From Lachnospiraceae bacterium MD329 (GTDB lineage: Bacteria > Bacillota > Clostridia > UBA1381): a stretch of 64,000 nt of DNA. The notes under the pieces were generated by a model. The model searched no databases, was not told the DNA's origin, and saw only the letters and a list, made by a program, of their open reading frames with translations. Positions 21,166-34,489 of this stretch are shown here, one piece after another. The position numbers and the translations under genes were made by a program. Positions within the stretch are counted from its first letter, which is position 1; every line of letters begins with the position of its first letter. The stretch is from assembly GCA_010206265.1 (NCBI GenBank), contig VIQV01000029.1, positions 124,001 through 188,000 of the forward strand, given 5' to 3'.

Positions 21166-21241
21166 GCTGGTATAGCTCAGTTGGTAGAGCAGCTCATTCG
21201 TAATGAGCAGGCCGCGGGTTCGAGTCCCATTACCAGCTCCA
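21166..21241 (+). tRNA. tRNA-Thr (anticodon CGT)
   Basis: A complete 76-base cloverleaf. The acceptor arm GCTGGTA pairs with TACCAGC. The anticodon stem GCTCA/TGAGC encloses loop TTCGTAA with anticodon CGT, and the T loop is GGTTCGAGTCCC-like. CCA is encoded at 21239-21241. A terminator follows at once. Confidence 0.96.
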
Positions 21242-21474: not shown

Positions 21475-22272
21475 TTACTCCAGTGACATTGCGAGCCTGT
21501 AAATAACAACACAAGTCCATAACTTTGTATCATCAAGGTTAAGTCCGTCCCCTGTACCGACAATTATACCATTATCTACGCACCACTTCACCGCAGTACG
21601 TGCCCATTCAGGCATATTATTATCAATATAATTATAAATCATTGGATTTTGCAGCTTATAAACCTCATTCTGCAAAACGTCTACACGCGCTGTCTGGTCA
21701 GCTATCAGCTTTTTAAGTTCTTCATATTGAGCCATAGTCAATTCCTCCTCAAAATCCTCACCGAGTATTGCATCGCCAATCGCTTGAGCAACTCCCTGTG
21801 CGGTTACTTTTTTATACAAATCCACATCTGAACGCGTATCGACAAAACACACCTCTACAAGCATTGCTCGCGCGTTTGTACGTCGTATAACATACAAATT
21901 CGAACCGTTTTTTATACCTCGGTTTATAAATCCCAACTTCTCCATATTCTCGCAGACAAGTTCTGCCTGACGGAATCTTTCACCGTTATAAGTATACACC
22001 TCCGTACCTCTGCCGCCGCCTGAATTAAAGTGAATTGACACAAACAAATCAAGCGGCTGTCTGTTCGCCATATCGACTATTTCACGCAGATTCTCCTGAG
22101 TACTTGACGCGCGGTCATTCGTACAGTCTATAACTGTAACGCCTCTTTCCCTGAGATAATACATAAGGCTGTACCCAACCGCTCGCGTTTCGCTGCTTTC
22201 ACTTATATAACCGACCGCTCCGCTGCCGGGCTGACCGCTTATCGTATGTCCGCAGTTTATTCCGACTATCAT
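21475..22272 (-). CDS. N-acetylmuramoyl-L-alanine amidase (endolysin)
   Basis: 265 residues. An Amidase_3 catalytic domain (about 1-175) carries the zinc ligands of CGH (residue 9), a Glu near SESSETRA, SIHFNS and the catalytic Glu of LVEVCFVD. The C-terminal part (about 180-265) has a helical linker and a small domain with MPEWARTAVKWCVDNG, common in clostridial phage endolysins and probably for wall binding. It would cut peptidoglycan to release particles. Last gene of the particle cluster, directly after the holin gene, with no secretion signal of its own. Confidence 0.9.
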   Translation of the reverse strand: MIVGINCGHTISGQPGSGAVGYISESSETRAVGYSLMYYLRERGVTVIDCTNDRASSTQENLREIVDMANRQPLDLFVSIHFNSGGGRGTEVYTYNGERFRQAELVCENMEKLGFINRGIKNGSNLYVIRRTNARAMLVEVCFVDTRSDVDLYKKVTAQGVAQAIGDAILGEDFEEELTMAQYEELKKLIADQTARVDVLQNEVYKLQNPMIYNYIDNNMPEWARTAVKWCVDNGIIVGTGDGLNLDDTKLWTCVVIYRLAMSLE

Positions 22273-22317: not shown

Positions 22318-22719
22318 TCACTGCTGTTTGTCCCTATCACGAATTTGCAGTAAAATATTTTTCATCCCGTCCGGCATATCGGGCAGTATTTCCGCGGCAT
22401 TTTCAAGTATGGAAATACTCTCGTTTGCTATGTAAAACATAATAACCATTTCACGTATTGCAGTACCGCCCGTAAGCACCTGTATAACATTTGCAAGCGC
22501 CACAACCGTAAGCACCGTAATTTTTTTAAGTATACCCTTAAACCCGATTTCACTCGACATCTGTTTTGTGTACACCGCTTTTATGACACCCGTAATATAG
22601 TCCATTACCATCAATATGACAAGCGTATATAAAACCGTATCCCACTTACCGAAAACACCTGCCAGTATTCCGCCTGCTATACCGAAAAATACACTTATTG
22701 AATTAAAAATCTTATCCAC
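22318..22719 (-). CDS. Phage holin family protein
   Basis: 133 residues with three or four membrane helices (about 10-28, 32-55 with VMDYITGVIKAV, 72-92). The segment MDYITGVIKAVYTK...GFKGILKKI is the signature of the phage holin 4 / phi-Cp-type family. Holins make pores that let the endolysin reach the wall. It lies between the tail tip gene and the endolysin gene, the usual place. Confidence 0.9.
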   Translation of the reverse strand: MDKIFNSISVFFGIAGGILAGVFGKWDTVLYTLVILMVMDYITGVIKAVYTKQMSSEIGFKGILKKITVLTVVALANVIQVLTGGTAIREMVIMFYIANESISILENAAEILPDMPDGMKNILLQIRDRDKQQ

Positions 22720-22733
22720 CTCTGTCCCCTCCT

Positions 22734-24149
22734 TTACTCCGTTAAAATTTTCTTACCGTTTATACATAAATATCCCGCCTCATTTTTCGTAATCGTGTTT
22801 GTACCGATAATAATTTTCTCGGCGGTCAAATCTCCTTTAAAATCCATTTTTCCGTCCGTACCCGTATCTATCGCAATATTGCCTGCATTGTCGCGTATTT
22901 TACATATAAATTTACCGTTCATATTGCCAATCTGAACCTTTGTAATACTGCCGTTTGAGATTTTCAGCAGGTCTGACAGAATCGATAAATCACCCGAATC
23001 CGACGTAAGGCGCACACCGCTGTTTGAAATCACCCCTGCAACTGCCTGCGCCTTAACCTTACCTGTTTCCGTAGAAATTTTGCTGTAACGCCGCGTAAGC
23101 GTTCCCATCTGTTCCAGATAAAAGAATAAATCACGCTTCACTCTGCCGATTGAAATAACAGTTCCGTCATTCTGATACGGATAATATTCAAGCTTAATAA
23201 CACGCTCTCTAATTTCGTTTCCGCTGTCTATCACTACAACCTCGTCGCCCAATTCAAGATGTTCGCTGCTGCCGCTTTCCTCCAGCTTTGAAATATCGGC
23301 AAACGTGCCTGTAATATTAATACTCGGCACATCGATTCTTTCTTCGTTCGCGCTGTCGAATTCCCATAGCGCGCGGCGTTTTATCTTGTCAGGCTCCATA
23401 TAATCGCTGTAATCGCGGTAACCCTCGCGCACACCGTAAACACCTGCGTTTGCGCTCTGAATATACTGCACTCCACCGTTCACACTGCCAATATGCGCGT
23501 CGTCCTTACCGTACGGATACAAACGTGTAACCATATCCGTTATATCACGTTCAACCGATATATTATGCATATTCTTTGTAAGGTCAAGACGCATATTATT
23601 GTTATGTCCTATTTTTTCAACAAGCGCAATACTGTAGTTATCCGAATAAATCTCACCCTTACCGCAGCTCTCAATAACTGCGCGTACCACGTCAAACGGA
23701 TTTGTCTTATCGGTTGAAAAAAAGTCAATCAGAAATCCGTCGTAATCAACCCGTTTCATTCCAAGTTCAGACAGTTTACTGTCGGAAATAAGAGTAAACT
23801 TGCTCCCTGAAAAAACCTTTGCTAAGATATTTGACGGACTTACTCCCATCATATCAGGAACATTCTGCAAGTGAATATTCGGAGCGTCGGCATTATAGAC
23901 ATGATGACATTCCGCCTCCAATACCGCCTCACCGCCCTTACTCCTTGCGACGCGTATTATTCTGTACGCCTGACCCTCACAGACCACAATTTTATTTTCT
24001 TCAATCATTTCCGATTTATCATTAATAGGATTTGTAAATTCCAGCATACGCGTACCGTTGATTTCGTGTGTGACGCGTACATTGTACGCGTCACCAAGCG
24101 TTATACCTTTTGTAAAATCCTCGGCATTGTATGGTAAAAGCTTTAACAT
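22734..24149 (-). CDS. Tail-associated (tail tip) structural protein
   Basis: 471 residues. The N-terminal part (about 1-330) matches the prophage tail / minor structural protein family found in siphophage baseplates (Tal-like). The C-terminal part (about 380-471) has the short repeat style NMNGKFICKIRDNAGNIAIDTGT, as in tail-tip extensions. It is short for a Tal protein that carries peptidase or receptor domains. No separate tail fibre gene follows, so this may be the only protein that could contact a host cell. Confidence 0.78.
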   Translation of the reverse strand: MLKLLPYNAEDFTKGITLGDAYNVRVTHEINGTRMLEFTNPINDKSEMIEENKIVVCEGQAYRIIRVARSKGGEAVLEAECHHVYNADAPNIHLQNVPDMMGVSPSNILAKVFSGSKFTLISDSKLSELGMKRVDYDGFLIDFFSTDKTNPFDVVRAVIESCGKGEIYSDNYSIALVEKIGHNNNMRLDLTKNMHNISVERDITDMVTRLYPYGKDDAHIGSVNGGVQYIQSANAGVYGVREGYRDYSDYMEPDKIKRRALWEFDSANEERIDVPSINITGTFADISKLEESGSSEHLELGDEVVVIDSGNEIRERVIKLEYYPYQNDGTVISIGRVKRDLFFYLEQMGTLTRRYSKISTETGKVKAQAVAGVISNSGVRLTSDSGDLSILSDLLKISNGSITKVQIGNMNGKFICKIRDNAGNIAIDTGTDGKMDFKGDLTAEKIIIGTNTITKNEAGYLCINGKKILTE

Positions 24150-25016: not shown

Positions 25017-26747
25017 TCAATAATACTTGCTATGCGCTATGCTAAGTCCGACCTTGTTTTTAAGCGCGTCAATAATATCTGAGCTGTTCGAGGAAATGCT
25101 TATTTTTCTGTTATCGGAATACGAACTGGACGAAACACGTATTGACTTTATCGCGCTTATTGTTTCGGCAAACAGTCCTGAAATCACATTCTGCATACCC
25201 TTCATATCATTATTTACACTCCGTACAATTCCCTCAATGTTAATACCTGATTTTTCAATAGTGTATAAAAGATATTTTTTGTTTGCCTCAATAACTTCAT
25301 AATCTTCTTCAAGCTTGTTGAGTGTTTCCGTATGTGTTTTTTGAAGCGCGTACATTTCCTCCTCACGCCGTATTTTTTTCATTTGTTCCTGCAGTGATTT
25401 GTACTTATCCATACCGCGTTCGGTCACAGCGCCTGCGTAAATTTTAAGCTCGTGCGCTATTCTTGCCTTATCCGCCTGCCTGTCCTCTGCCGCCCATTTT
25501 TCCGAAAGCGAGTTTTCCTCGTTCGCAAAGCGTTCTTTTGTATTTTTTATGTATTCCTTTTGCCTTGACAGCAGCTCGTCAACCTCGTCCATTTTTGCTT
25601 TATATAAATCAAGCTTTGCAATCATCGTATCATCACGGTATTCCTGCCAGCCGACATAACCGCCGTCGTACATCTGCTGTATACGCTCTATACTGCGTTC
25701 ATAAAACTGAACTGGAGAATCGCCCCATTCCTCCCAGTCGTCATAGGTGTCACGGATATTTTTCCAGTTTTTCGCGTCGCTCTGCCATTTTGTGTACACC
25801 GCATAATTTTTCTGCTCCGTAAGTTTGCCTATTTTTAAATCTACGCCTGCCTTGTACTCATAAAAATCGTCCCAGATTTCCTTCATTTCATCTGATGAAT
25901 ACATAGTTGACGCGACCATTTTCGACACCATCTCATTATATGACTCTAACTGACGTTTATAAGCCTCTATCTGACCGTCAACGCCCATTCCGCCAACCTC
26001 GGTCTGGTATTTTATCCACGCGTCAGAATGTTTTTTGTAGTCTGCGAGCGCGGCAGAGCTCTCTTTTTTCTGCGCGCTCCAAATTTTCTGCTGCGCCGCA
26101 AAAATCTCCTCTTGACATTCCTTTACCGCCTCGCTGTCATACATAAACTGCTCCATAAGCTCGTTCCACCATTCAAGCTCCTGCGCCGCAGACATATTAT
26201 GCGTTTTCTTATAATGCGTAAAATCCGCTTTTGCGGATTCAAACATCTCATTGTTTTTTCCGCGCGCATAATGAGGAATACCGAGCCCCTTCATAATTGC
26301 CTTTGTTTCATCTGCCGTGTAAACCTTATCGCCTTTTGAAAGCGGTACAATTACGTCACGTCCCGAAAACATCATCAGCCGTCCGTTATGCTCCACCAGT
26401 TCTCTCGGGTCGCTTACGCCGCGTTCATCATTTATTACGCCCAAACCTTCACGGGCATTTTTTGTACCGCCTGCCAGACGCGGAATCCCCGACACTGCAT
26501 AACGCAAAGATATAGTAACCGTCTTATCCGACAAACTGTTAATACTCCTCTTTGCCGCCGCCACACCCTCCGCCGTGTTATCTACGGCAGTCAGCTTAAA
26601 GGACGCCTCCTTACCTGCAAAATCATTCATTATTTTGCCTGCGGACGAATTTAAAGTGCCGATTGCCGCCTCCGCCGCGTTCAATGAGCTTATAAGCCCA
26701 GACGCGTCGCCCGTTATACTGACCGAAAGATTTGCAGCCTCTGCCAT
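25017..26747 (-). CDS. Short tail tape measure protein
   Basis: 576 residues, mostly alpha-helical and coiled coil with many charged heptads (about 150-500). The N-terminus (SVSITGDASGLISSLNAAEA) and central GGxxNAREG region resemble tape measure starts. It lies after the gpG/gpGT chaperone genes and before Dit, the fixed place of the tape measure. It is short (phages often have 700-1500 residues) and shows no clear membrane helices or peptidase domain, implying a short tail. Confidence 0.78.
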   Translation of the reverse strand: MAEAANLSVSITGDASGLISSLNAAEAAIGTLNSSAGKIMNDFAGKEASFKLTAVDNTAEGVAAAKRSINSLSDKTVTISLRYAVSGIPRLAGGTKNAREGLGVINDERGVSDPRELVEHNGRLMMFSGRDVIVPLSKGDKVYTADETKAIMKGLGIPHYARGKNNEMFESAKADFTHYKKTHNMSAAQELEWWNELMEQFMYDSEAVKECQEEIFAAQQKIWSAQKKESSAALADYKKHSDAWIKYQTEVGGMGVDGQIEAYKRQLESYNEMVSKMVASTMYSSDEMKEIWDDFYEYKAGVDLKIGKLTEQKNYAVYTKWQSDAKNWKNIRDTYDDWEEWGDSPVQFYERSIERIQQMYDGGYVGWQEYRDDTMIAKLDLYKAKMDEVDELLSRQKEYIKNTKERFANEENSLSEKWAAEDRQADKARIAHELKIYAGAVTERGMDKYKSLQEQMKKIRREEEMYALQKTHTETLNKLEEDYEVIEANKKYLLYTIEKSGINIEGIVRSVNNDMKGMQNVISGLFAETISAIKSIRVSSSSYSDNRKISISSNSSDIIDALKNKVGLSIAHSKYY

Positions 26748-26750
26748 AAA

Positions 26751-27205
26751 CTATACCTCCTTTCCGTAGAACATTTTTAAATGCTCGTCCGTGTATTCTT
26801 CCTCTTCACGCATACTGTCAAGCATACGGAAAAGCACCCACGGATTCTGCCGTCCCACCTCGTCAGGCAGCAGATGATGGCACTCCAGAAATATGATGTA
26901 TATATCTCTGAGAGCACCGCTGCCGCCGCCTGACGTTATTCGTTTTTTGACGAAAGCGCGTCAACATAAAAACCCCATAGGGTTATACACATTTTTGCGC
27001 GTGTGTTTATATCCAGAGAACCAATTATATCATTGGTGGCGTCCGTACCCTCAAACAGGTAATCCACCGCGTCACGGCATATGTTAAGCGGACCTTTTTT
27101 ACCGTCGTCGTTATGTGCGTCGTTTATAATGCACATAGCCTCAAAGTCAAACGGCTTGGATACATATTTAATTTTGTCCTTTGTAAATGTTAATGTATGC
27201 TGCAT
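26751..27205 (-). CDS. gpGT-type tail assembly chaperone made by -1 frameshift
   Basis: The gpG frame (27205-26936) contains the slippery heptamer A AAA AAC at 26948-26942, two codons before its stop. Slipping back one base joins an open frame that continues to TAG at 26753-26751 and adds about 65 residues (KRITSGGGSGALRDIYI..., ending MFYGKEV). That frame has no good start of its own. Tail assembly chaperones of many siphophages are made as a short form and a frameshifted long form; position just before the tape measure gene fits exactly. Confidence 0.8.
26936..27205 (-). CDS. gpG-type tail assembly chaperone, short form
   Basis: 89 residues, MQHTLTFTKDKIKYVSKPFD... ending VDALSSKNE. It lies between the major tail protein and tape measure genes, where the G/GT chaperone pair is found; these keep the tape measure soluble during tail assembly. 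The frameshift site is in its last codons. Confidence 0.82.
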   Translation of the reverse strand: MQHTLTFTKDKIKYVSKPFDFEAMCIINDAHNDDGKKGPLNICRDAVDYLFEGTDATNDIIGSLDINTRAKMCITLWGFYVDALSSKNE

Positions 27206-27217
27206 TTCGTTTCTCCT

Positions 27218-27817
27218 TTACACCGTTTCAGGATAGTAATTCATATCCTTAAACCACTGTTCTTCAAAAGCCTCTCTTGTAACGCCTGACGGTAAATCGC
27301 TCTCGTCAAAATATGCGTAATAATTATTGTCAAAATCACGCTGTACAGCAGTGTAAGTCGCTTTGGCGGTCTGTCTGTCAATAGAACCGCTTGACGGTTT
27401 TGTTTTACCGCCGACATTTGACGCAAAGCTGTATGAGCCTTTATAATATCTGACGTAACGGTATGAACCGTCCGACTTCAATATTCGCCACGCCACACCG
27501 AAATACACTGTCTTTGTGTCATTGCCGACTTCTACAACGCCGTTTTTGCGTTCCAGTCCGCGCCAAATAGCGTCAACCTCAGGCGGAATATCTGCATTTG
27601 TAATATCGTGTCCGATTTTTTCTATATAGCTTGCTGTTTCATACGCGCCGTTATCAGCGTCAAAAATCTCACTGCCTCCCGCGTCTGTAGGCGCAATTTC
27701 AACAGTGCCCTTGAGGTTGTAAGCGTCGCCGTATTCCGTACCCTCTGCGGTATCAGAAACAACGTTAAAGAAAGTATATTTGTCTACACCTATTGTAGGT
27801 AATGGTTTTTTGTTCAT
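27218..27817 (-). CDS. Major tail tube protein
   Basis: 199 residues, soluble, beta-rich. The N-terminus (PTIGVDKYTFFNVV) and TVEIAPTDAGGSEIFDADNG with a following IEKIGHDIT match the phi13/Gram-positive major tail protein family. Copies of it stack into the tail tube. Length and place (after head-tail connectors, before the chaperones) are standard. Confidence 0.87.
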   Translation of the reverse strand: MNKKPLPTIGVDKYTFFNVVSDTAEGTEYGDAYNLKGTVEIAPTDAGGSEIFDADNGAYETASYIEKIGHDITNADIPPEVDAIWRGLERKNGVVEVGNDTKTVYFGVAWRILKSDGSYRYVRYYKGSYSFASNVGGKTKPSSGSIDRQTAKATYTAVQRDFDNNYYAYFDESDLPSGVTREAFEEQWFKDMNYYPETV

Positions 27818-27870: not shown

Positions 27871-28215
27871 TCATTCTAATATGAAATACTTTTGAAATCT
27901 CATCGTTCTGTGATACAGCTTGTCGTTTCCGCGCGGTACGTCCATTGACATTTCACGCGTCCAGCCGTCAGAGGTCAGCACTTTGTTTACCTCTATTGAA
28001 ATATCGTAACACTCCTTCGGACTGCGTGACCATATATCAATCTGTACATAGCCCTCTTGTATACTCTCGTTATTGTCGGCATAAAACGCGCCCTTTTCCG
28101 ACAGATTGTAATAGCTTATCACAGGCAGACGAGAAAAATGTTCAGGGTATTGGTATACAAGATTGTACCCTGTTTTTTCAAGGCTTTTCTTCGCCTCATT
28201 ATTTATATCAAGCAT
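27871..28215 (-). CDS. Tail terminator / completion protein
   Basis: 114 residues. Sequence such as VISYYNLSEKGAFYADNNES and VQIDIWSRSPKECYDISIEV is typical of the tail-completion (gp17/DUF3168-like) proteins that cap the tail tube before joining the head. It lies between the HK97 gp10-like and the major tail genes, the expected place. Confidence 0.75.
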   Translation of the reverse strand: MLDINNEAKKSLEKTGYNLVYQYPEHFSRLPVISYYNLSEKGAFYADNNESIQEGYVQIDIWSRSPKECYDISIEVNKVLTSDGWTREMSMDVPRGNDKLYHRTMRFQKYFILE

Positions 28216-28226
28216 TGCTTTCCTCC

Positions 28227-28553
28227 TTAAAGTGCCGTCAGCGTTGCGGCTATTGCTTCTGCAACCGCGTCCGAATTATTTATAAGCGACGGCACAAGGT
28301 ACGGCTGCGGAGCTGATTTTGAAGTACCGAATTCCACATACGCGGCATATTCTGTATTTGCTGAAACCACGGCGGTATTACCTTCCCCGCTTACCTCAAT
28401 CGACTCACGCAGTCTGCCCGTATCAACGGGACAGGAATTACGCGCCCTCTGAGCAACGTTCTCCCCTGCCTCCCTGACCGCCTGCGCCATACTCTCTCCA
28501 ATTCTTTCAGCAATCTTTGAAAGACCTCCGTTATATGTAACACTCACTTTCAC
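28227..28553 (-). CDS. HK97 gp10-like tail component
   Basis: 108 residues with the family core ARNSCPVDTGRLRESIE and YAAYVEFGT, seen in HK97 gp10-type proteins of the head-tail joint. Complete by length. Stop and start spacing to both neighbours is very short, as in the rest of the operon. Confidence 0.88.
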   Translation of the reverse strand: MKVSVTYNGGLSKIAERIGESMAQAVREAGENVAQRARNSCPVDTGRLRESIEVSGEGNTAVVSANTEYAAYVEFGTSKSAPQPYLVPSLINNSDAVAEAIAATLTAL

Positions 28554-28554
28554 G

Positions 28555-28857
28555 TTAAATCCCCCTTATCAAAGCGCACATTCCAAGTTTCCATATCTCT
28601 GCACGAACTATTCTGTACCACTCTCCGCCTATTTTTACACGTCTGCCGTTTACAAGCAAATTATTGTGTCCGCAGTACAGCTTATACGCTTTATTATCTG
28701 AAAAACCATAAATATCGTTATCCATATCGCCGTCATAAGGCTGTATGTCGCACAGAACTCTTCCCAGAAACGTATCCTGACCGTCATTACCGTAGTTTTC
28801 GTTCTTTTCTGAATATACGCTTATTTTGGTATCATAAAATCTGTCAAACGGATTCAT
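28555..28857 (-). CDS. Head-tail adaptor (head closure) protein
   Basis: About 100 residues from ATG 28857 (GGAG ten bases upstream); ATG 28863 is an alternative, and the earlier frame to 28896 lies inside the preceding gene. The motif RVKIGGEWYRIVRAEIWK resembles SPP1 gp16-type stoppers that close the head after DNA packaging. It overlaps the end of the connector gene. Confidence 0.78.
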   Translation of the reverse strand: MNPFDRFYDTKISVYSEKNENYGNDGQDTFLGRVLCDIQPYDGDMDNDIYGFSDNKAYKLYCGHNNLLVNGRRVKIGGEWYRIVRAEIWKLGMCALIRGI

Positions 28858-29203
28858 TTTCATCACTCTCCACCTCTGACGGCAGACATACCGCACGGCT
28901 TACGAACGGTTTGAGCCGTTCGTAATATCCGCTTAAAACACTGCCGCTGTCGCTGTATTCAACGCGTCTTTCACCTTCGGAGATTGTCCTTATGCCGTCG
29001 GACACGCCCCTTTTATATTCTGCCGCCGCAATGCGCGGTATAAGTCCTTCAAGCTGACGCGGCAATACATCAATACGGCAGTAGGACAGCACCGCATTTA
29101 TCGTATCTTCAATCAAGAGTAAAAGCAGACCGTCATTGTCCTCGTCATTAAACTCCAAAAGCAATTTTACTGCCTCCAGATATTCAGGTTTAGTGTCCCT
29201 CAT
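28844..29203 (-). CDS. Head-tail connector (gp6/gp15-like)
   Basis: 119 residues, helical, with LLEFNDEDNDGLLLLLIEDTI and VLSYCRIDVLPRQLEGLIPR, matching the phage connector family that docks under the portal. A 12-base repeat (AGGGACACTAAA) forms its second to fifth codons and lies again just before its ATG. Confidence 0.82.
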   Translation of the reverse strand: MRDTKPEYLEAVKLLLEFNDEDNDGLLLLLIEDTINAVLSYCRIDVLPRQLEGLIPRIAAAEYKRGVSDGIRTISEGERRVEYSDSGSVLSGYYERLKPFVSRAVCLPSEVESDENESV

Positions 29204-29218: not shown

Positions 29219-30052
29219 TTAATTGCCTGTCGCCGTACTGCTTTTGAATACATAAATTGCATTCTTTTTCTGACTGAGTACAAATGCGTCATAATATACT
29301 CTGCCTTCAACCAGCCAGCCGTTTATTCCTGGAGGATTATCGTGAATTTTATATTCCGAAAGTTTTACAGGCGCAGTAACTGCCGACTGATTTGTTATAA
29401 TCAGCTCCACACCTTCCGGCAGATATGATGTCGGTACAACAATAACTGGAATACCGTCAATTGAACCAACCTGACCTTTTATAAGCATTTCCTGAGCCAT
29501 ATCACCGTTTCTTATAAAGCTTGCGTCCTCTTTGATGTTCTTGTAAAAGTTTGTCGAAACGAACGCAACACAGCCTGTAAGCGGTACGTTGTTTTCGATA
29601 AGCTCTGACGCGCCCGTCAGAAACGTATCGTATGCGGTAGTTTTGTTTAGTGTCCCTGTAACCGTCTTGCCTGCTCCCGTACAGATTTTCTCGAAACGGT
29701 ATTTGTCGATCTCGGGAACTACTACTTCACGTATTTGTCTTTGCAAAGCCGCACCTGCCGCATTTGACATCTGCGTATCGTTATATGTACCGCGGTCAAT
29801 CGTAAATGTAAAGCTCCTGTCCTTTGACATTGTAAGTTCCTGAACATTGCTCTCCAGTTCCTGCGGCGCGCCGTAACGGCTTGTTCCCGTTACGGAGTAA
29901 TCGTTCATATCCGCCGTCGGCACACTGTAGACATTTACGGTTTTCACGCCTACAAAGTCGTAATCGTTATTTACCGCAGGAGAAGTCATTGACTCCCTTG
30001 CAAATTTTTCATCAATTTTCTGAGCATATTTACTTGCGTAATTTATAGCCAT
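29219..30052 (-). CDS. Major capsid protein
   Basis: 277 residues. MAINYASKYAQKIDEKFARES at the start and TFTIDRGTYNDTQMSNAAGAALQRQ in the middle match HK97-fold major capsid proteins of the Gram-positive type that use a separate scaffold. No N-terminal delta domain, so the scaffold gene upstream provides that role. Complete by length; together with the short tape measure it implies a small siphovirus-like particle. Confidence 0.88.
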   Translation of the reverse strand: MAINYASKYAQKIDEKFARESMTSPAVNNDYDFVGVKTVNVYSVPTADMNDYSVTGTSRYGAPQELESNVQELTMSKDRSFTFTIDRGTYNDTQMSNAAGAALQRQIREVVVPEIDKYRFEKICTGAGKTVTGTLNKTTAYDTFLTGASELIENNVPLTGCVAFVSTNFYKNIKEDASFIRNGDMAQEMLIKGQVGSIDGIPVIVVPTSYLPEGVELIITNQSAVTAPVKLSEYKIHDNPPGINGWLVEGRVYYDAFVLSQKKNAIYVFKSSTATGN

Positions 30053-30075: not shown

Positions 30076-30618
30076 TTATATCCCTAACCCGTTTAAAAAC
30101 GGGTCGCTGCCTTCTGGAACTTCTCTTGAAATTTTCGGTGTCTTACCCTTTAATCTTTCGTACAGTCCCGCCTCAATTGCCTTTAAATATTCTGCCTTGA
30201 AAGCGGAAATATTTTTAACCGTCGTTTCCTTGTCAGCGTCGGCAAGCATATGTGCAAACGTTACGGGCAAATTCTGCGCCGCAAGCTCCTTTGCCGCCTC
30301 AAACTCGGCTCTTTCGCTGACATACTGCTGTCTTTCCTCCTCGAAGTCCTTCTGCTTTTTCTCCATTTCAAACTTCGCTCTTTCCTCAGCAGACATTGAG
30401 GCAAGACGCGCGGCGTCCTCTCTTTCGGCAGTAACTCTCGTTTCCATATCCTTTTCCCACGCCTGCTTTGCGCCGGCAAGCTCCTCGCTTATAAGACTTT
30501 TGACAAGCTCTTTAAGCTCATCATTTTTATGTCCTTCATTATTCTTGTCCGATGACTTTTTATGTCCCTCATTTTTGTTTTGAGCATCGTTTTTTAGTGT
30601 CCCTTTTTCTTTATCCAT
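30076..30618 (-). CDS. Capsid scaffolding protein (DUF4355-like)
   Basis: 180 residues, highly charged and helical (Lys/Glu/Asp-rich, coiled coil about 45-120), with a C-terminal KISREVPEGSDPFLNGLG tail typical of DUF4355 scaffolds. These bind capsid subunits and guide shell assembly. It directly precedes the capsid gene. Confidence 0.85.
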   Translation of the reverse strand: MDKEKGTLKNDAQNKNEGHKKSSDKNNEGHKNDELKELVKSLISEELAGAKQAWEKDMETRVTAEREDAARLASMSAEERAKFEMEKKQKDFEEERQQYVSERAEFEAAKELAAQNLPVTFAHMLADADKETTVKNISAFKAEYLKAIEAGLYERLKGKTPKISREVPEGSDPFLNGLGI

Positions 30619-30639: not shown

Positions 30640-31956
30640 TTAGTGTCCCTGCGGTCTTGCTGATTTTTCCTCCAATAAACGTTCCTTTTGCGCTAACTGC
30701 GCCTCCTCCTTGGCGTCACCGACAAACGAAAGCTGACTTAACAGCGTTTCATTCGTTGCAATACCCGAAAGATTTCTTATCATTTGTGAAACTTCAAGCT
30801 CATTTACAGGCAGATTTCTTGTAAAAACAGCGTCAATCCTATGCAGCGGCACATATTCCATAGCTCCTTTAAGAGATAGAAAATTAATGTACAGCTCCAA
30901 CCGTCTTTTTAACGACTTCGCAAAATAGCGTTCCTTGTTTCTTATGTGCTGTTCAAAACCCATAAGCTTGTACTTTATCGCTACTCCGGATAAATTGGTT
31001 CCGAAGGTCTGGTCGGATAAATCAGGTATCATTGAAAAACGGTGAATATCCGATTTAAGACTGTCACGCAAAACCTCAATATCGCCCTCCGACATAACCT
31101 TTGCAAGATATTCCGCCTCCGCACCGTCATAACCCATAAGAATACGTTCCTCGCGCAGTTTCTTTGCCTGATCACTGTCAATTTCAATATTCCTCAGGAA
31201 CAAAAATGCGTCAACAAACTGCTCCTTATCATTTACACGGTCCGACTGCAAAACATTATACGCGTCAATAAGCGGTATAAGCTGTTCAAAATCACCCTGC
31301 TTTTCTTCGTTGTTTCGGTATTCAATAAGCGGTATGGCGCCAAAATAATGACGGTGTTTTTCACTTAAAGTCATATGCGTAAAACTGTCGGCGCTGTTGG
31401 TATAGGTGTACATATACTCACTGTCGCACACCATACAGCATACGCTTGTTACACTGCCGTCAACATCACGGTTTTTATAGTAATGAATACCATAAATCGG
31501 ATTTTCACCGACGCCCGAACCATACACCACAAATGTATTCATCGGCGGCAGGCACACGCTTTTGGGCTGAGAATACTCATCCACATAAACAAGCTCGTAT
31601 GCTTTGCCGTAAATACTCATCATCTTTTCAAGCTCCGAATCAATACTTGCCATATCCTGAACAATAAAACTGTTTTTAAGCGACTCAATATCGTAGCCAT
31701 CGGAACAGGTGTACGTTATCGGATTTCCGACAAGATAACTCTTTGCAATATCCACAATATATTTTGCGTGATTGCACACAACCCTGTTGTTTGCAACTCC
31801 CTCGCTGTAACGGCGCCGTGAAATAATATCGTGTTTACCCGTATAGTAGTTTCTTAACTGCTCGTAACGCTCGCCCTCAAGCATATGACGCGCAATTAAT
31901 TTTTGAAGTATGACATCATCTAAACCGTCATTTAAGATTTTTTCATCAATTATCAT
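30640..31956 (-). CDS. Portal protein (SPP1 gp6-like)
   Basis: 438 residues. Motifs VDIAKSYLVGNPITYTCSDG and SGVAIKYKLMGFEQHIRNKE are typical of SPP1-type portal proteins, which form the dodecameric ring through which DNA enters the head. Start overlaps the terminase stop by four bases (ATGA). The SPP1-type minor head protein gene that often follows a portal is missing here. Confidence 0.9.
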   Translation of the reverse strand: MIIDEKILNDGLDDVILQKLIARHMLEGERYEQLRNYYTGKHDIISRRRYSEGVANNRVVCNHAKYIVDIAKSYLVGNPITYTCSDGYDIESLKNSFIVQDMASIDSELEKMMSIYGKAYELVYVDEYSQPKSVCLPPMNTFVVYGSGVGENPIYGIHYYKNRDVDGSVTSVCCMVCDSEYMYTYTNSADSFTHMTLSEKHRHYFGAIPLIEYRNNEEKQGDFEQLIPLIDAYNVLQSDRVNDKEQFVDAFLFLRNIEIDSDQAKKLREERILMGYDGAEAEYLAKVMSEGDIEVLRDSLKSDIHRFSMIPDLSDQTFGTNLSGVAIKYKLMGFEQHIRNKERYFAKSLKRRLELYINFLSLKGAMEYVPLHRIDAVFTRNLPVNELEVSQMIRNLSGIATNETLLSQLSFVGDAKEEAQLAQKERLLEEKSARPQGH

Positions 31957-33203
31957 ACATTCAGCTCCTTTCTGTTTATAATCCTCGCTCTTTTGTTTGT
32001 GATATACTCCTCAAGCGCATAACGCACGGCGTCAATACTATGATTGTTCTTATCAGGGTATTCAGCCTTAAATTCACCGTTTTTATCACGTTCCAGCTCG
32101 TACTCCGAAAACTCGCGCGCAGTATTTTTACACCGCTCCGAGTCAATCACAATTTTTCTTAAACCCTGCAAAAACCGTATACCGTATTCAATACTGTCAG
32201 GACCCTTGCGAGCTCCGCGCACACGCAGTCCATATCCTCTCAAATCATTTATACTCTTTGGTTCGGCGCTGTCACAAATAATGAGCCTTTCGGGATAACC
32301 ATACCGATAAATCTCTTCCGCCGCCCTGAAATTCGTCATTCCCGCCGCATATATCTCTCCAAAGATAAATAACACGTCATTATGAAGGTAACAAACGACA
32401 TAAACAAACGGGTCTGACGCAAAACCAAAATCAATACCGCATTTAACGTTATCAAAGCCCTGTATTTCGTCATCGGTAATACGGCGTATTTCGAGATTAT
32501 CAAACACTTCACCGCCCGTACCCGTCACTTCTCCGAGATACTCGTGATTATATTGTGTCGGGTGTAGCTTTTTAAGATACTCAGCCTCCAAAAAAAATTG
32601 TTCACCGAGCCATTCGCGCGGTACGTCAAGATATGTGCTTTTATGTACAAGCGTATCTTTACGCCGCTTTTGTATTTCACGGTTTACCCAGTTACGCCTG
32701 TTTTGCGGCGGGTTGTAGGAATAGAACACGGTAAATTTTTCACCGCCGCGCAGCATTGACTGGTTTATGGAACGGATTTCTTTCATTCCGTGAAACTCGT
32801 CAAGCTCCTCATACCAGACATAACGAATATAACCTTTTGTAACTTTTGTGGATTTAAGCTTTTGCGGCTTGTCAGCGCCCCGAAAAAGAATTTTCTGCCC
32901 TGTTTTTTTATAAATCATTTCGGGAACACTCGCTTTAATTTCCCACATATCGCCTACATTCAGCTTTTCCACTGCCCATATAAGCTGTGACAGCACACTG
33001 TCACGCAAATATGCGCCGACCTTGCGGAGTACAACGGCATTTGCGTCGGGATTCCGCATTATACCGAGGATTATTTCAATACTGATAAAACTTGATTTCG
33101 TCGAACCGCGTCCGCCGCACAGCCAGATGTGAGTGTAATCGTCAAGCGACCTGTGCACACTGTAAAATGACGGTGCGATAAGTTCATTCAGTCTTACCTG
33201 CAT
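31953..33203 (-). CDS. Large terminase subunit (PBSX family)
   Basis: About 416 residues. Walker A is CGGRGSTKSS (about residue 30); the C-terminal RNase H-like nuclease shows KCGIDFGFASDPF, LIICDSAEPKS and HSIDAVRYAL with its acidic metal ligands. It pumps DNA into the head and cuts it. The ATG at 33203 is preferred (GGTGA upstream); a GTG at 33212 is possible. Start overlaps the small terminase gene. All catalytic motifs look intact. Confidence 0.92.
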   Translation of the reverse strand: MQVRLNELIAPSFYSVHRSLDDYTHIWLCGGRGSTKSSFISIEIILGIMRNPDANAVVLRKVGAYLRDSVLSQLIWAVEKLNVGDMWEIKASVPEMIYKKTGQKILFRGADKPQKLKSTKVTKGYIRYVWYEELDEFHGMKEIRSINQSMLRGGEKFTVFYSYNPPQNRRNWVNREIQKRRKDTLVHKSTYLDVPREWLGEQFFLEAEYLKKLHPTQYNHEYLGEVTGTGGEVFDNLEIRRITDDEIQGFDNVKCGIDFGFASDPFVYVVCYLHNDVLFIFGEIYAAGMTNFRAAEEIYRYGYPERLIICDSAEPKSINDLRGYGLRVRGARKGPDSIEYGIRFLQGLRKIVIDSERCKNTAREFSEYELERDKNGEFKAEYPDKNNHSIDAVRYALEEYITNKRARIINRKELNV

Positions 33204-33408
33204 TTTTATCACCTGAAATATTGTCCACGATAATTACCTCACCCGTATCTGCCGCACGGCTTTCGGTAAACAGTCCGTAATGCTTTCCCAGAAGCTCAGC
33301 CGCCTTAAAGGAATCGGAAAACTTTATATTGTCTGTTTCATCAAAGCCGTCGCGCCGCATTACGTCTGTAAGGTATTCAAGAACCTCATTTTCATCTGCC
33401 ACACTCAC
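33184..33408 (-). CDS. Small terminase subunit lacking its DNA-binding domain
   Basis: 74 residues from GTG 33408, seven bases after AGGAGG. The sequence ENEVLEYLTDVMRRDGFDET ... FKAAELLGKHYGLFTE matches the C-terminal half of Terminase_2 family small subunits (the oligomerisation and TerL-contact part). The N-terminal helix-turn-helix region, normally 60-80 residues that recognises pac DNA, is absent. The longer open frame to 33468 overlaps the preceding Zn-ribbon gene, has no ribosome site, and its extra residues do not resemble the domain. See findings: loss of site recognition is expected if the particle packages any DNA. Confidence 0.72.
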   Translation of the reverse strand: MSVADENEVLEYLTDVMRRDGFDETDNIKFSDSFKAAELLGKHYGLFTESRAADTGEVIIVDNISGDKNAGKTE

Positions 33409-33419
33409 AGCGTCACCTC

Positions 33420-33620
33420 CTAAAACAGAACTTCTGTTTTGTAAATACACTCGCTGCAGCCGACACATTCCTCGTCCTCGTCGAGGTAATAATGTTCAGG
33501 CTCATACGCTCCGCACACGGGACATTTCTCATATTCCGCCTCACCGCAGTCACCGTAATTTTCCGTCCGCTCTCTTTCCATTGCCAAGAGCGACATCGGG
33601 TCATCATTTGAATAAATCAT
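33420..33620 (-). CDS. Small zinc-ribbon protein, first gene of the particle operon
   Basis: 66 residues with two CxxC pairs: CPVCGAYEPEHYY and CVGCSECIY, a classic zinc ribbon. It begins MIYSNDDPMSLLAMERERTE. AAAGGAG lies five bases before ATG 33620. Similar small Cys-rich proteins occur beside terminase genes in clostridial prophages, function unknown. A competing frame at 33413-33607 lacks Cys spacing and a ribosome site. Confidence 0.7.
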   Translation of the reverse strand: MIYSNDDPMSLLAMERERTENYGDCGEAEYEKCPVCGAYEPEHYYLDEDEECVGCSECIYKTEVLF

Positions 33621-33633
33621 AAGCACTCCTTTC

Positions 33634-33816
33634 TATCTTTTTAAGATACTATAACATTAAAAATTTTTGCCGGTTTTAAACCGTTCCTTTAAGACACCTC
33701 GATTATATCATAAAAAGATACTCTTGTCAAGCATTTTTGTTTCTTTTTAAGATATTTAATATATTTTACAGATACTTTTCCGCTTAACTGCTTGATTTTT
33801 GTTGATTTTTATGATA
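33634..33816. promoter_or_regulatory. Operator array between repressor and particle operon
   Basis: A 15-base palindrome TATCTTTTTAAGATA is perfect at 33634-33648. Near copies: TATCATAAAAAGATA (33706-33720, inside the spacer of the minus-strand promoter), TTTCTTTTTAAGATA (33740-33754) and a weaker TTGATTTTTATGATA (33802-33816, over the repressor's own start region). Spacing and position are those of a phage repressor operator set. Confidence 0.75.
33702..33730 (-). promoter_or_regulatory. Consensus promoter of the particle operon
   Basis: On the minus strand TTGACA (33730-33725), 17-base spacer, TATAAT (33707-33702). An operator palindrome occupies the spacer, so repressor binding would block polymerase. 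Transcript start near 33695, about 75 bases before the first gene. Confidence 0.85.
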
Positions 33817-33859: not shown

Positions 33860-34489
33860 ATGACAACGGGCGAAAGAATACGCCGTCTGCGCAAGGAACA
33901 CGGACTGACACAAGAGGAGCTTGGCGCAAAAATCGGTGTACAGAAAGCAGCCATACAAAAATACGAAAAAGGCACAGTAACAAATATTAAGCGCGATTCA
34001 CTTATAAAGCTGGCGCAGATTCTTGATACAACCCCCGAATACCTTCTCGGCTGGGACAATGCCCCTGCCAATGTTGAGGCGGTGGACGAAAGCGAATTTG
34101 TAAATATACCGATTATAGGCAGGGTTGCGGCAGGCGTTACCTGCTTTGCGGAAAACAATATTACAGGTTATGAGCCTGTAATGCGGAGTGACCTCTCACA
34201 CGGTGAGCAGTATGCGTTTTTACGGGTAGTCGGCGACAGTATGTACCCTGTATTTATGGAAGGCGACCTCGTGCTTGTACGCTGTCAGACCTCAGTTGAC
34301 AGCGGCAGTTATGCGGTAGTCACAATTGATGATGAAGACGGTGTTGTAAAAAAAGTAGTTTATGACAGGGACTTTATCGAACTTCAGTCAATTAACCCTA
34401 TGTATCCGCCGCGCAGGTTTGAAGGCGAGGAAGTTTTACGTATACGTGTTTTCGGACTTGTTAAAGAAATAAAGCGAAAATTCCGATAA
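33860..34489 (+). CDS. LexA/CI-like repressor with self-cleavage domain
   Basis: 209 residues. Helix-turn-helix of the XRE type at about 5-60 (LTQEELGAKIGVQKAAIQKY), then an S24 peptidase domain: cleavage site Ala91-Gly92 in GRVAAGVT, nucleophile Ser127 in VVGDSMYP and the general-base Lys at about 164 in GVVKKV. All parts needed for RecA-stimulated self-cleavage are present, so DNA damage should release repression. It faces away from the particle operon with the operator array between them. AAAGGAGG precedes the ATG. Confidence 0.93.
   Translation: MTTGERIRRLRKEHGLTQEELGAKIGVQKAAIQKYEKGTVTNIKRDSLIKLAQILDTTPEYLLGWDNAPANVEAVDESEFVNIPIIGRVAAGVTCFAENNITGYEPVMRSDLSHGEQYAFLRVVGDSMYPVFMEGDLVLVRCQTSVDSGSYAVVTIDDEDGVVKKVVYDRDFIELQSINPMYPPRRFEGEEVLRIRVFGLVKEIKRKFR

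What the first reader, a model, noticed from the sequence alone, without database searches (positions are those of the whole stretch)
33184..33408. Small terminase without its DNA-recognition domain
Seen: from the only well-placed start (GTG after AGGAGG) the protein is 74 residues and matches only the C-terminal half of Terminase_2 small subunits. The preceding 60-80 residue helix-turn-helix is missing; the space upstream is taken by a Zn-ribbon gene. Known: the small terminase normally picks the pac site, and the GTA small terminase of Rhodobacter is reported to lack specific site recognition. Inference: packaging by this cluster is likely non-specific, supporting the transfer-agent idea.
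Basis: partly seen in the sequence, partly recalled or inferred. Interest (0 to 1): 0.72.

Follow-up and report, generated by a model that had tools for sequence, protein, structure and literature searches.

The report
Small terminase lacking DNA-recognition domain
In a family of uncultured gut Clostridia, a complete phage-particle gene cluster without integration or replication genes has been kept as a host gene set, and the protein that normally picks which DNA to pack has lost its DNA-reading half in every copy examined, so the particle probably packs bacterial DNA indiscriminately; this resembles known gene transfer agents but has not been tested.

Summary
The helix-turn-helix (HTH) is absent: there is no room for it (Zn-ribbon gene 11 bp upstream) and no remnant in any frame. 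It is not a local truncation: all 25 orthologous clusters with a visible terS, in six genera of one Clostridia family, lack it. Full-length TerS genes with HTH sit in ordinary prophages of the same genomes, and their TerLs form the sister group. The ~12-kb cluster (TerS to endolysin, plus a divergent HTH-S24 repressor) has no integrase or replication genes, keeps the same chromosomal neighbour in 12/12 genomes of the genus, is under purifying selection, and is read from a near-perfect sigma-70 promoter. This fits a domesticated, inducible, siphovirus-type, gene-transfer-agent-like particle. Non-specific packaging is likely but inferred. HTH loss is not diagnostic: two prophage-like loci also lack it. 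RcGTA TerS and Faecalibacterium FpGTA I TerS already show the same trait, so this is a new, separately derived case of a known kind. Further HTH-less TerS genes adjoin unrelated TerLs elsewhere in Clostridia.

The parts
33184..33408 (-). terS: HTH-less small terminase, 74 aa (GTG start, SD AGGAGG); two helices plus a C-terminal EVIIVDNI tail
33420..33626 (-). small acidic Zn-ribbon protein (conserved start ATG at 33620; CPxCG...CxGCxxC), first gene of the operon
   Evidence: homologues in prophage early regions
31953..33212 (-). terL: large terminase (Terminase_3 + Terminase_3C); Walker A/B and nuclease Asp residues invariant in 20 orthologues; overlaps terS by 29 nt
30640..31956 (-). portal, SPP1 gp6 family
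30076..30618 (-). scaffold (DUF4355 / gp46-like)
29219..30052 (-). major capsid protein (PHROG 422)
28844..29203 (-). head-tail connector (Phage_connect_1)
28555..28896 (-). head closure/stopper-like protein (PHROG 939)
28227..28553 (-). HK97 gp10-like tail-completion protein
27871..28215 (-). tail terminator (PHROG 78)
27218..27817 (-). major tail protein (PHROG 88)
26936..27205 (-). small tail-region protein (tail chaperone by position only)
   Evidence: conserved in orthologous clusters; no family hit
25017..26747 (-). short tape-measure protein, 576 aa
24162..25001 (-). distal tail protein Dit (Sipho_tail / SPP1_Dit)
22734..24149 (-). tail endopeptidase/Tal-like protein
22318..22719 (-). 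holin (Phage_holin_4_1)
21475..22272 (-). endolysin (Amidase_3)
33860..34489 (+). divergent HTH_3 + Peptidase_S24 (CI/LexA-type) repressor
   Evidence: conserved in the orthologous clusters
33702..33730 (-). operon promoter TTGACA-N17-TATAAT (perfect consensus) overlapping a GTATCTTTTTATGATAT element
   Evidence: perfect in 20 and one mismatch in 2 of 22 orthologous intergenic regions
33633..33649 (-). repressor-operator-like palindrome GTATCTTAAAAAGATAG just upstream of the Zn-ribbon gene

Best explanation
The gene is a SPP1/SF6-family small terminase reduced to its oligomerisation helices and TerL-docking tail; the N-terminal HTH that reads or bends the pac region was lost at the base of the domesticated clade. 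It belongs to a vertically kept, integrase-free, repressor-controlled gene set for a siphovirus-like particle. Shown here: domain loss, conservation, selection, gene content, promoter. Inferred: when the S24 repressor is inactivated the operon is expressed; TerS oligomerises and activates TerL and portal without selecting a site; TerL cuts host DNA at effectively random places and fills heads until full; holin and amidase release the particles. In function this would be a gene-transfer-agent-like particle, although delivery into recipients is untested.
For: Short TerS profile matches SF6 G1P 3zqp only at residues 84-160 (E 7e-10), whereas full-length prophage TerSs match 25-159 and the isolated DNA-binding-domain entries 2cmp and 4zc3. 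hhalign places the short family on residues ~57-141 of full TerS (probability 99). AF2 gives two helices (6-18, 30-43), with best Foldseek hit full-length SF6 TerS 3zqq, then its oligomerisation core 3zqm. All 25 orthologous clusters with a visible terS are HTH-less. Of 37 IMG/VR loci with a detectable TerS, 35 have long frames; the 2 short ones are fragments of this same cluster. TerL tree: the cluster rows group together (support 89), sister to prophages of the same host family, nearly all with full TerS. Same M16-peptidase neighbour in 12/12 genus members. dN/dS mostly 0.03-0.3 across the cluster. TerL ATPase and nuclease residues invariant. No PF00589 or PF07508 recombinase inside the cluster in 8 genomes. 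Perfect sigma-70 promoter in 20/22 orthologous intergenic regions. Precedents: RcGTA, FpGTA.
Against: No packaging, particle or DNA-binding data for this organism. HTH-less TerS also occurs in two prophage-like loci (L156, L160). The window's TerS is acidic and has no basic N-terminus, unlike many orthologues. PBSX shows that particles can package host DNA without being gene-delivery agents (PMC12946183 discussion).
Confidence: 0.62

Rival explanations
1. The particle is PBSX-like: it packages host DNA non-specifically but serves mainly as a killing particle and does not deliver genes.
For: Siphovirus-type tail, holin and endolysin, repressor control, no replication module; PBSX is the Gram-positive precedent (discussed in PMC12946183).
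Against: Head, packaging and portal genes are all under purifying selection; a pure killer could lose them, though PBSX has not.
Confidence: 0.2
2. Site recognition is kept but supplied by another protein (the Zn-ribbon protein, the repressor, TerL itself or a host factor), so packaging is still specific.
For: Among the TerL relatives examined, the Zn-ribbon gene was found only in loci with a short TerS, normally directly upstream of it; the CI-type repressor is the only recognised HTH protein in the cluster.
Against: Zn-ribbon homologues sit in prophage early regions away from any TerS; in G064 (L143/L186) the terS-terL pair has moved about 4 kb away from the Zn-ribbon gene and TerS is still HTH-less; the protein is strongly acidic (pI 4.1). 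TerS synonymous rates are not consistently lower than those of neighbouring genes, so there is no clear sign of an embedded pac site.
Confidence: 0.12
3. A decaying defective prophage whose TerS happens to be truncated.
For: No integrase or replication genes.
Against: Retained in 26 genomes of six genera of the family with nearly constant gene order, dN/dS well below 1, conserved promoter; a real broken TerS (L077) looks different, with its HTH preserved out of frame.
Confidence: 0.03
4. Ordinary temperate phage with a TerS type that never needed an HTH.
For: Two prophage-like loci have HTH-less TerS (L156, L160).
Against: No mobility genes within the cluster, fixed locus within the genus, single TerL lineage, and the nearest TerL relatives are prophages with full TerS and a recombinase within roughly 11-17 kb in several cases.
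Confidence: 0.03

Closest known systems
RcGTA gp1 (Rhodobacter capsulatus GTA small terminase; PMC6854486)
   Same: Small terminase beside terL, no N-terminal HTH, helical oligomerisation region kept, in a domesticated phage gene cluster
   Different: RcGTA is alphaproteobacterial with P22-like headful TerL ancestry (PMC7947584); here the terminase is SPP1/SF6-type (PF03592 + PF04466) in Clostridia with a CI/S24 repressor
FpGTA I of Faecalibacterium prausnitzii (PMC12946183)
   Same: Compact Clostridia gut cluster with a TerS lacking an obvious DNA-binding domain, TerL, portal, scaffold and capsid genes; no replication genes
   Different: FpGTA is described as podovirus-like with tail-fibre/baseplate and lysis genes in a second operon; this cluster has a siphovirus tail and lysis genes in one operon.
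Phage SF6/SPP1 small terminase G1P (PDB 3zqp/3zqq/3zqm)
   Same: Same fold family over the oligomerisation core and C-terminal tail
   Different: The window protein lacks the N-terminal DNA-binding domain (PDB 2cmp and 4zc3 are matched only by full-length relatives)
PBSX of Bacillus subtilis
   Same: Repressor-controlled defective phage cluster, described as a GTA-like element
   Different: PBSX packages host DNA but is described as not injecting it; not compared by sequence here

Membership tests
Terminase_2 small terminase (PF03592) | Homology over the oligomerisation and C-terminal region | tested here: met
Terminase_2 small terminase (PF03592) | N-terminal HTH DNA-binding domain | tested here: not met
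   absent in the window and in all 25 orthologous clusters with a visible terS; a positive control detects a hidden HTH
Gene transfer agent | Phage-derived structural, packaging and lysis genes without integrase or replication genes | tested here: met
Gene transfer agent | Vertical inheritance and purifying selection in the host lineage | tested here: met
   (strong within the genus; flanks differ between most other genera)
Gene transfer agent | Particles package essentially random host DNA shorter than the gene cluster | not testable with these tools
   needs capsid DNA sequencing
Gene transfer agent | Delivery of DNA to recipient cells | not testable with these tools
   needs a transfer assay
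GTA-type small terminase (RcGTA gp1 kind) | Lacks N-terminal HTH, keeps helical oligomerisation region | tested here: met
GTA-type small terminase (RcGTA gp1 kind) | Weak sequence-independent DNA binding | not testable with these tools
   window protein is acidic, pI 4.4; many orthologues have a basic N-terminus
RcGTA family proper | Homology of the cluster to the alphaproteobacterial RcGTA genes | not tested
   TerL belongs to Terminase_3 (PF04466) and the portal is SPP1-like; no direct comparison with RcGTA proteins made
FpGTA I | Podovirus-like FpGTA I gene set | not tested
   no FpGTA sequence available; the siphovirus tail genes here argue against it
Active temperate prophage | Integrase, replication genes, variable insertion sites | tested here: not met
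   (integrase and insertion site); no replication gene among the annotated cluster genes

The most novel reading that the evidence does not exclude
Loss of the TerS HTH is a recurrent, perhaps defining, step in independent domestications of phages in Clostridia. HTH-less PF03592-type TerS genes adjoin unrelated TerL and head modules in at least three settings: this SPP1-like cluster, a compact siphovirus-like cluster in a second family (L193, L194, L201), and podovirus-type terminases (L190, L192; L195, L196, L200 in a third family). Non-specific packaging would then have evolved repeatedly by deleting one domain, and a short TerS in a compact cluster would be a usable marker for finding gene transfer agents in gut Firmicutes.
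Probability: 0.35. Interest if true: 0.78.

Novelty: new member of a known kind. Interest (0 to 1): 0.58.

Why it matters
Gene transfer agents outside Alphaproteobacteria are few, and the only Clostridia example found in the literature searched is the podovirus-like FpGTA (2026). A siphovirus-type candidate kept across six genera, with close prophage relatives that still carry the full TerS in the same genomes, gives a natural before-and-after pair for testing how a phage packaging motor loses its sequence specificity.

Tried and rejected
Hidden or frameshifted HTH: rejected by six-frame profile search with a working positive control. Zn-ribbon protein as a split-off recognition domain: disfavoured; its AF2 model is low confidence (pLDDT 67) and was not searched. 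tRNA-Thr at 21166-21241 as an old attachment site: it belongs with a neighbouring S21-GatB/Yqey block that is inverted in two relatives, and no tRNA was found in the other loci scanned; not pursued. The TerS AF2 model has only two helices, so fold search alone is weak (best Foldseek E 0.025); the sequence-profile evidence carries the claim. Direct homology to FpGTA could not be tested because no Faecalibacterium sequence was reached.

Full report
OBSERVATION. The ORF at 33184-33408(-) is real: 74 aa from a GTG 7 nt after AGGAGG. It matches only the C-terminal part of Terminase_2 (profile 73-134 of 141, E 2.6e-4) and PHROG 51 (150-231 of 261, E 4.8e-8). The Zn-ribbon gene ends 11 bp upstream, so there is no room for a HTH; residues gained by reading further upstream are out-of-frame Zn-ribbon sequence. 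A full-length TerS profile run on all six frames finds no HTH here, but does find one out of frame in L077, a frameshifted prophage TerS, which serves as a positive control.

WHAT IT IS. A profile of 19 short TerSs (A3) hits phage SF6 G1P (3zqp) only at residues 84-160, E 7e-10. A profile of full-length TerSs from prophages of the same host family hits 25-159 and also the isolated DNA-binding-domain structures 2cmp and 4zc3. hhalign puts the short family on residues ~57-141 of the 150-residue full form. AF2 (mean pLDDT 76) gives two helices and a loose tail; the best Foldseek hits are full-length SF6 TerS (3zqq, E 0.025) and its oligomerisation core (3zqm). The tail motif (V/I)xI(V/I)D(N/D)I is shared with full-length TerSs and even with a different HTH TerS of the second prophage in this genome, consistent with a TerL-docking segment (inference).

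THE CLUSTER. From the Zn-ribbon gene to the endolysin (33626-21475, ~12 kb): TerS, TerL (Terminase_3), SPP1-type portal, scaffold, capsid, connectors, tail terminator, tail tube, tape measure, Dit, Tal, holin, amidase, with a divergent HTH-S24 repressor at 33860-34489. The gene content and order recur in 26 genomes of one family: 14 of the 16 genomes held of the window's genus, plus genera g4, g6, g10, g11 and g16. One of the 26 starts just before terL at a contig edge (G013), several others are cut by contig ends, and in G064 the terS-terL pair is relocated. In the window's genus the M16 peptidase is the neighbour in 12 of 12 genomes with enough flank; other genera mostly have other neighbours. 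No tyrosine integrase or large serine recombinase lies inside the cluster in eight genomes searched; a serine recombinase at about window 6075 lies 14 kb away beyond host genes. TerL Walker and nuclease residues are invariant. dN/dS is mostly 0.03-0.3 for every gene, including terS (0.05-0.26 in seven of eight pairs; the eighth, 0.67, rests on few changes).

REGULATION. The repressor/Zn-ribbon intergenic region carries TTGACA-N17-TATAAT perfectly in 20 and with one mismatch in 2 of 22 orthologues (0-5.5% of shuffled sequences get that close), with GTATCTTAAAAAGATAC-like palindromes in most. Control by the S24 repressor is inferred.

SHORT VERSUS FULL TerS. All 25 orthologous clusters with a visible terS are HTH-less. 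Among 100 IMG/VR loci, 37 have a detectable TerS: 35 long, and the two short ones are fragments of this same cluster. In a 115-row TerL tree the cluster rows group (support 89) beside prophages of the same hosts, nearly all with full TerS (support 87), implying loss within this lineage. Exceptions matter: L156 (Lachnospiraceae MAG) and L160 (Oscillospiraceae MAG, with an integrase-like gene) are prophage-like and also lack the HTH, so the trait is not proof of a gene transfer agent.

WIDER PATTERN. A class-wide search (391 genomes) found further HTH-less TerSs beside other TerLs: a compact siphovirus-like cluster in family f21, podovirus-like clusters in genera g15 and g13 of the window's own family, and a TerS-TerL pair in family f13, whose TerL is found in 6/6 genomes. 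Whether these correspond to FpGTA could not be tested.

MECHANISM. Shown: domain loss, conservation, selection, gene content, promoter. Inferred: oligomeric TerS activates TerL without choosing a site, and headful filling packs host DNA. RcGTA TerS binds DNA weakly and without preference (PMC6854486); FpGTA I TerS lacks an obvious DNA-binding domain, and Faecalibacterium packages 8.4-8.9 kb of seemingly random host DNA (PMC12946183); [quoted passage not shown] Caution: the SF6 HTH itself has little local specificity (PMC4737164) and the window TerS is acidic (pI 4.4), so TerL may have to bind DNA itself.

VERDICT. Observation confirmed and extended to a family-wide trait; interpretation partly supported. 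The trait is already known from two gene transfer agents, so this is a new, separately derived member of a known kind.

Noticed in passing
L193, L194, L201 (e.g. L193:9497-19957): A second Clostridia family (f21) has a compact siphovirus-like cluster that also begins with a ~60-aa HTH-less TerS; its TerL is found in 3 of 6 genomes held.
   Followed up: partly
L190:267-11299, L192, L191, L199: Podovirus-like compact clusters in other genera of the window's own family, with HTH-less TerS, PHROG 979 TerL, PHROG 156 portal and an internal virion protein; gene content resembles the published description of FpGTA I.
   Followed up: partly
L195, L196, L200: Family f13: ~58-aa HTH-less TerS directly beside a PHROG 979 TerL (TerL in 6/6 genomes), with no capsid genes recognised nearby.
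   Followed up: partly
L064, L065, L067, L068, L069, L182, L183 intergenic: In several other genera the promoter spacer carries CGAAC-N4-GTGTG-like sequence resembling a Bacillus LexA/SOS box instead of the repressor palindrome, suggesting direct SOS control.
   Followed up: no
L051:14113-14382 and L063:6547-6825: Two orthologous short TerSs have gained long basic, AT-hook-like N-termini (RKRRPAR, GRKRGPGR), possibly a non-specific DNA-binding replacement.
   Followed up: partly
window 33420-33626 family; e.g. L174:7897-8103, L178:8002-8205, L179:9203-9454: The Zn-ribbon protein is a recurrent small gene of prophage early regions in this host family (MIYxNDDPxAxxAMExxRTGNYG start); function unknown.
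   Followed up: partly
G000:C23 ~75401-100924 (L076, L082): A second prophage in the same genome, with a different HTH-bearing TerS sharing the same IIDDIP tail and a serine recombinase at about 100.6 kb.
   Followed up: partly
L053, L056, L057, L059, L060 repressor/Zn-ribbon intergenic: Repeated GC-rich palindromic inserts (e.g. GTAGGGGCGACC...) expand this intergenic region in one subclade.
   Followed up: no
L156:9769-10017 and L160:9781-10020: Prophage-like loci (L160 with an integrase-like gene) whose TerS also lacks a HTH, so the trait is not restricted to domesticated clusters.
   Followed up: partly
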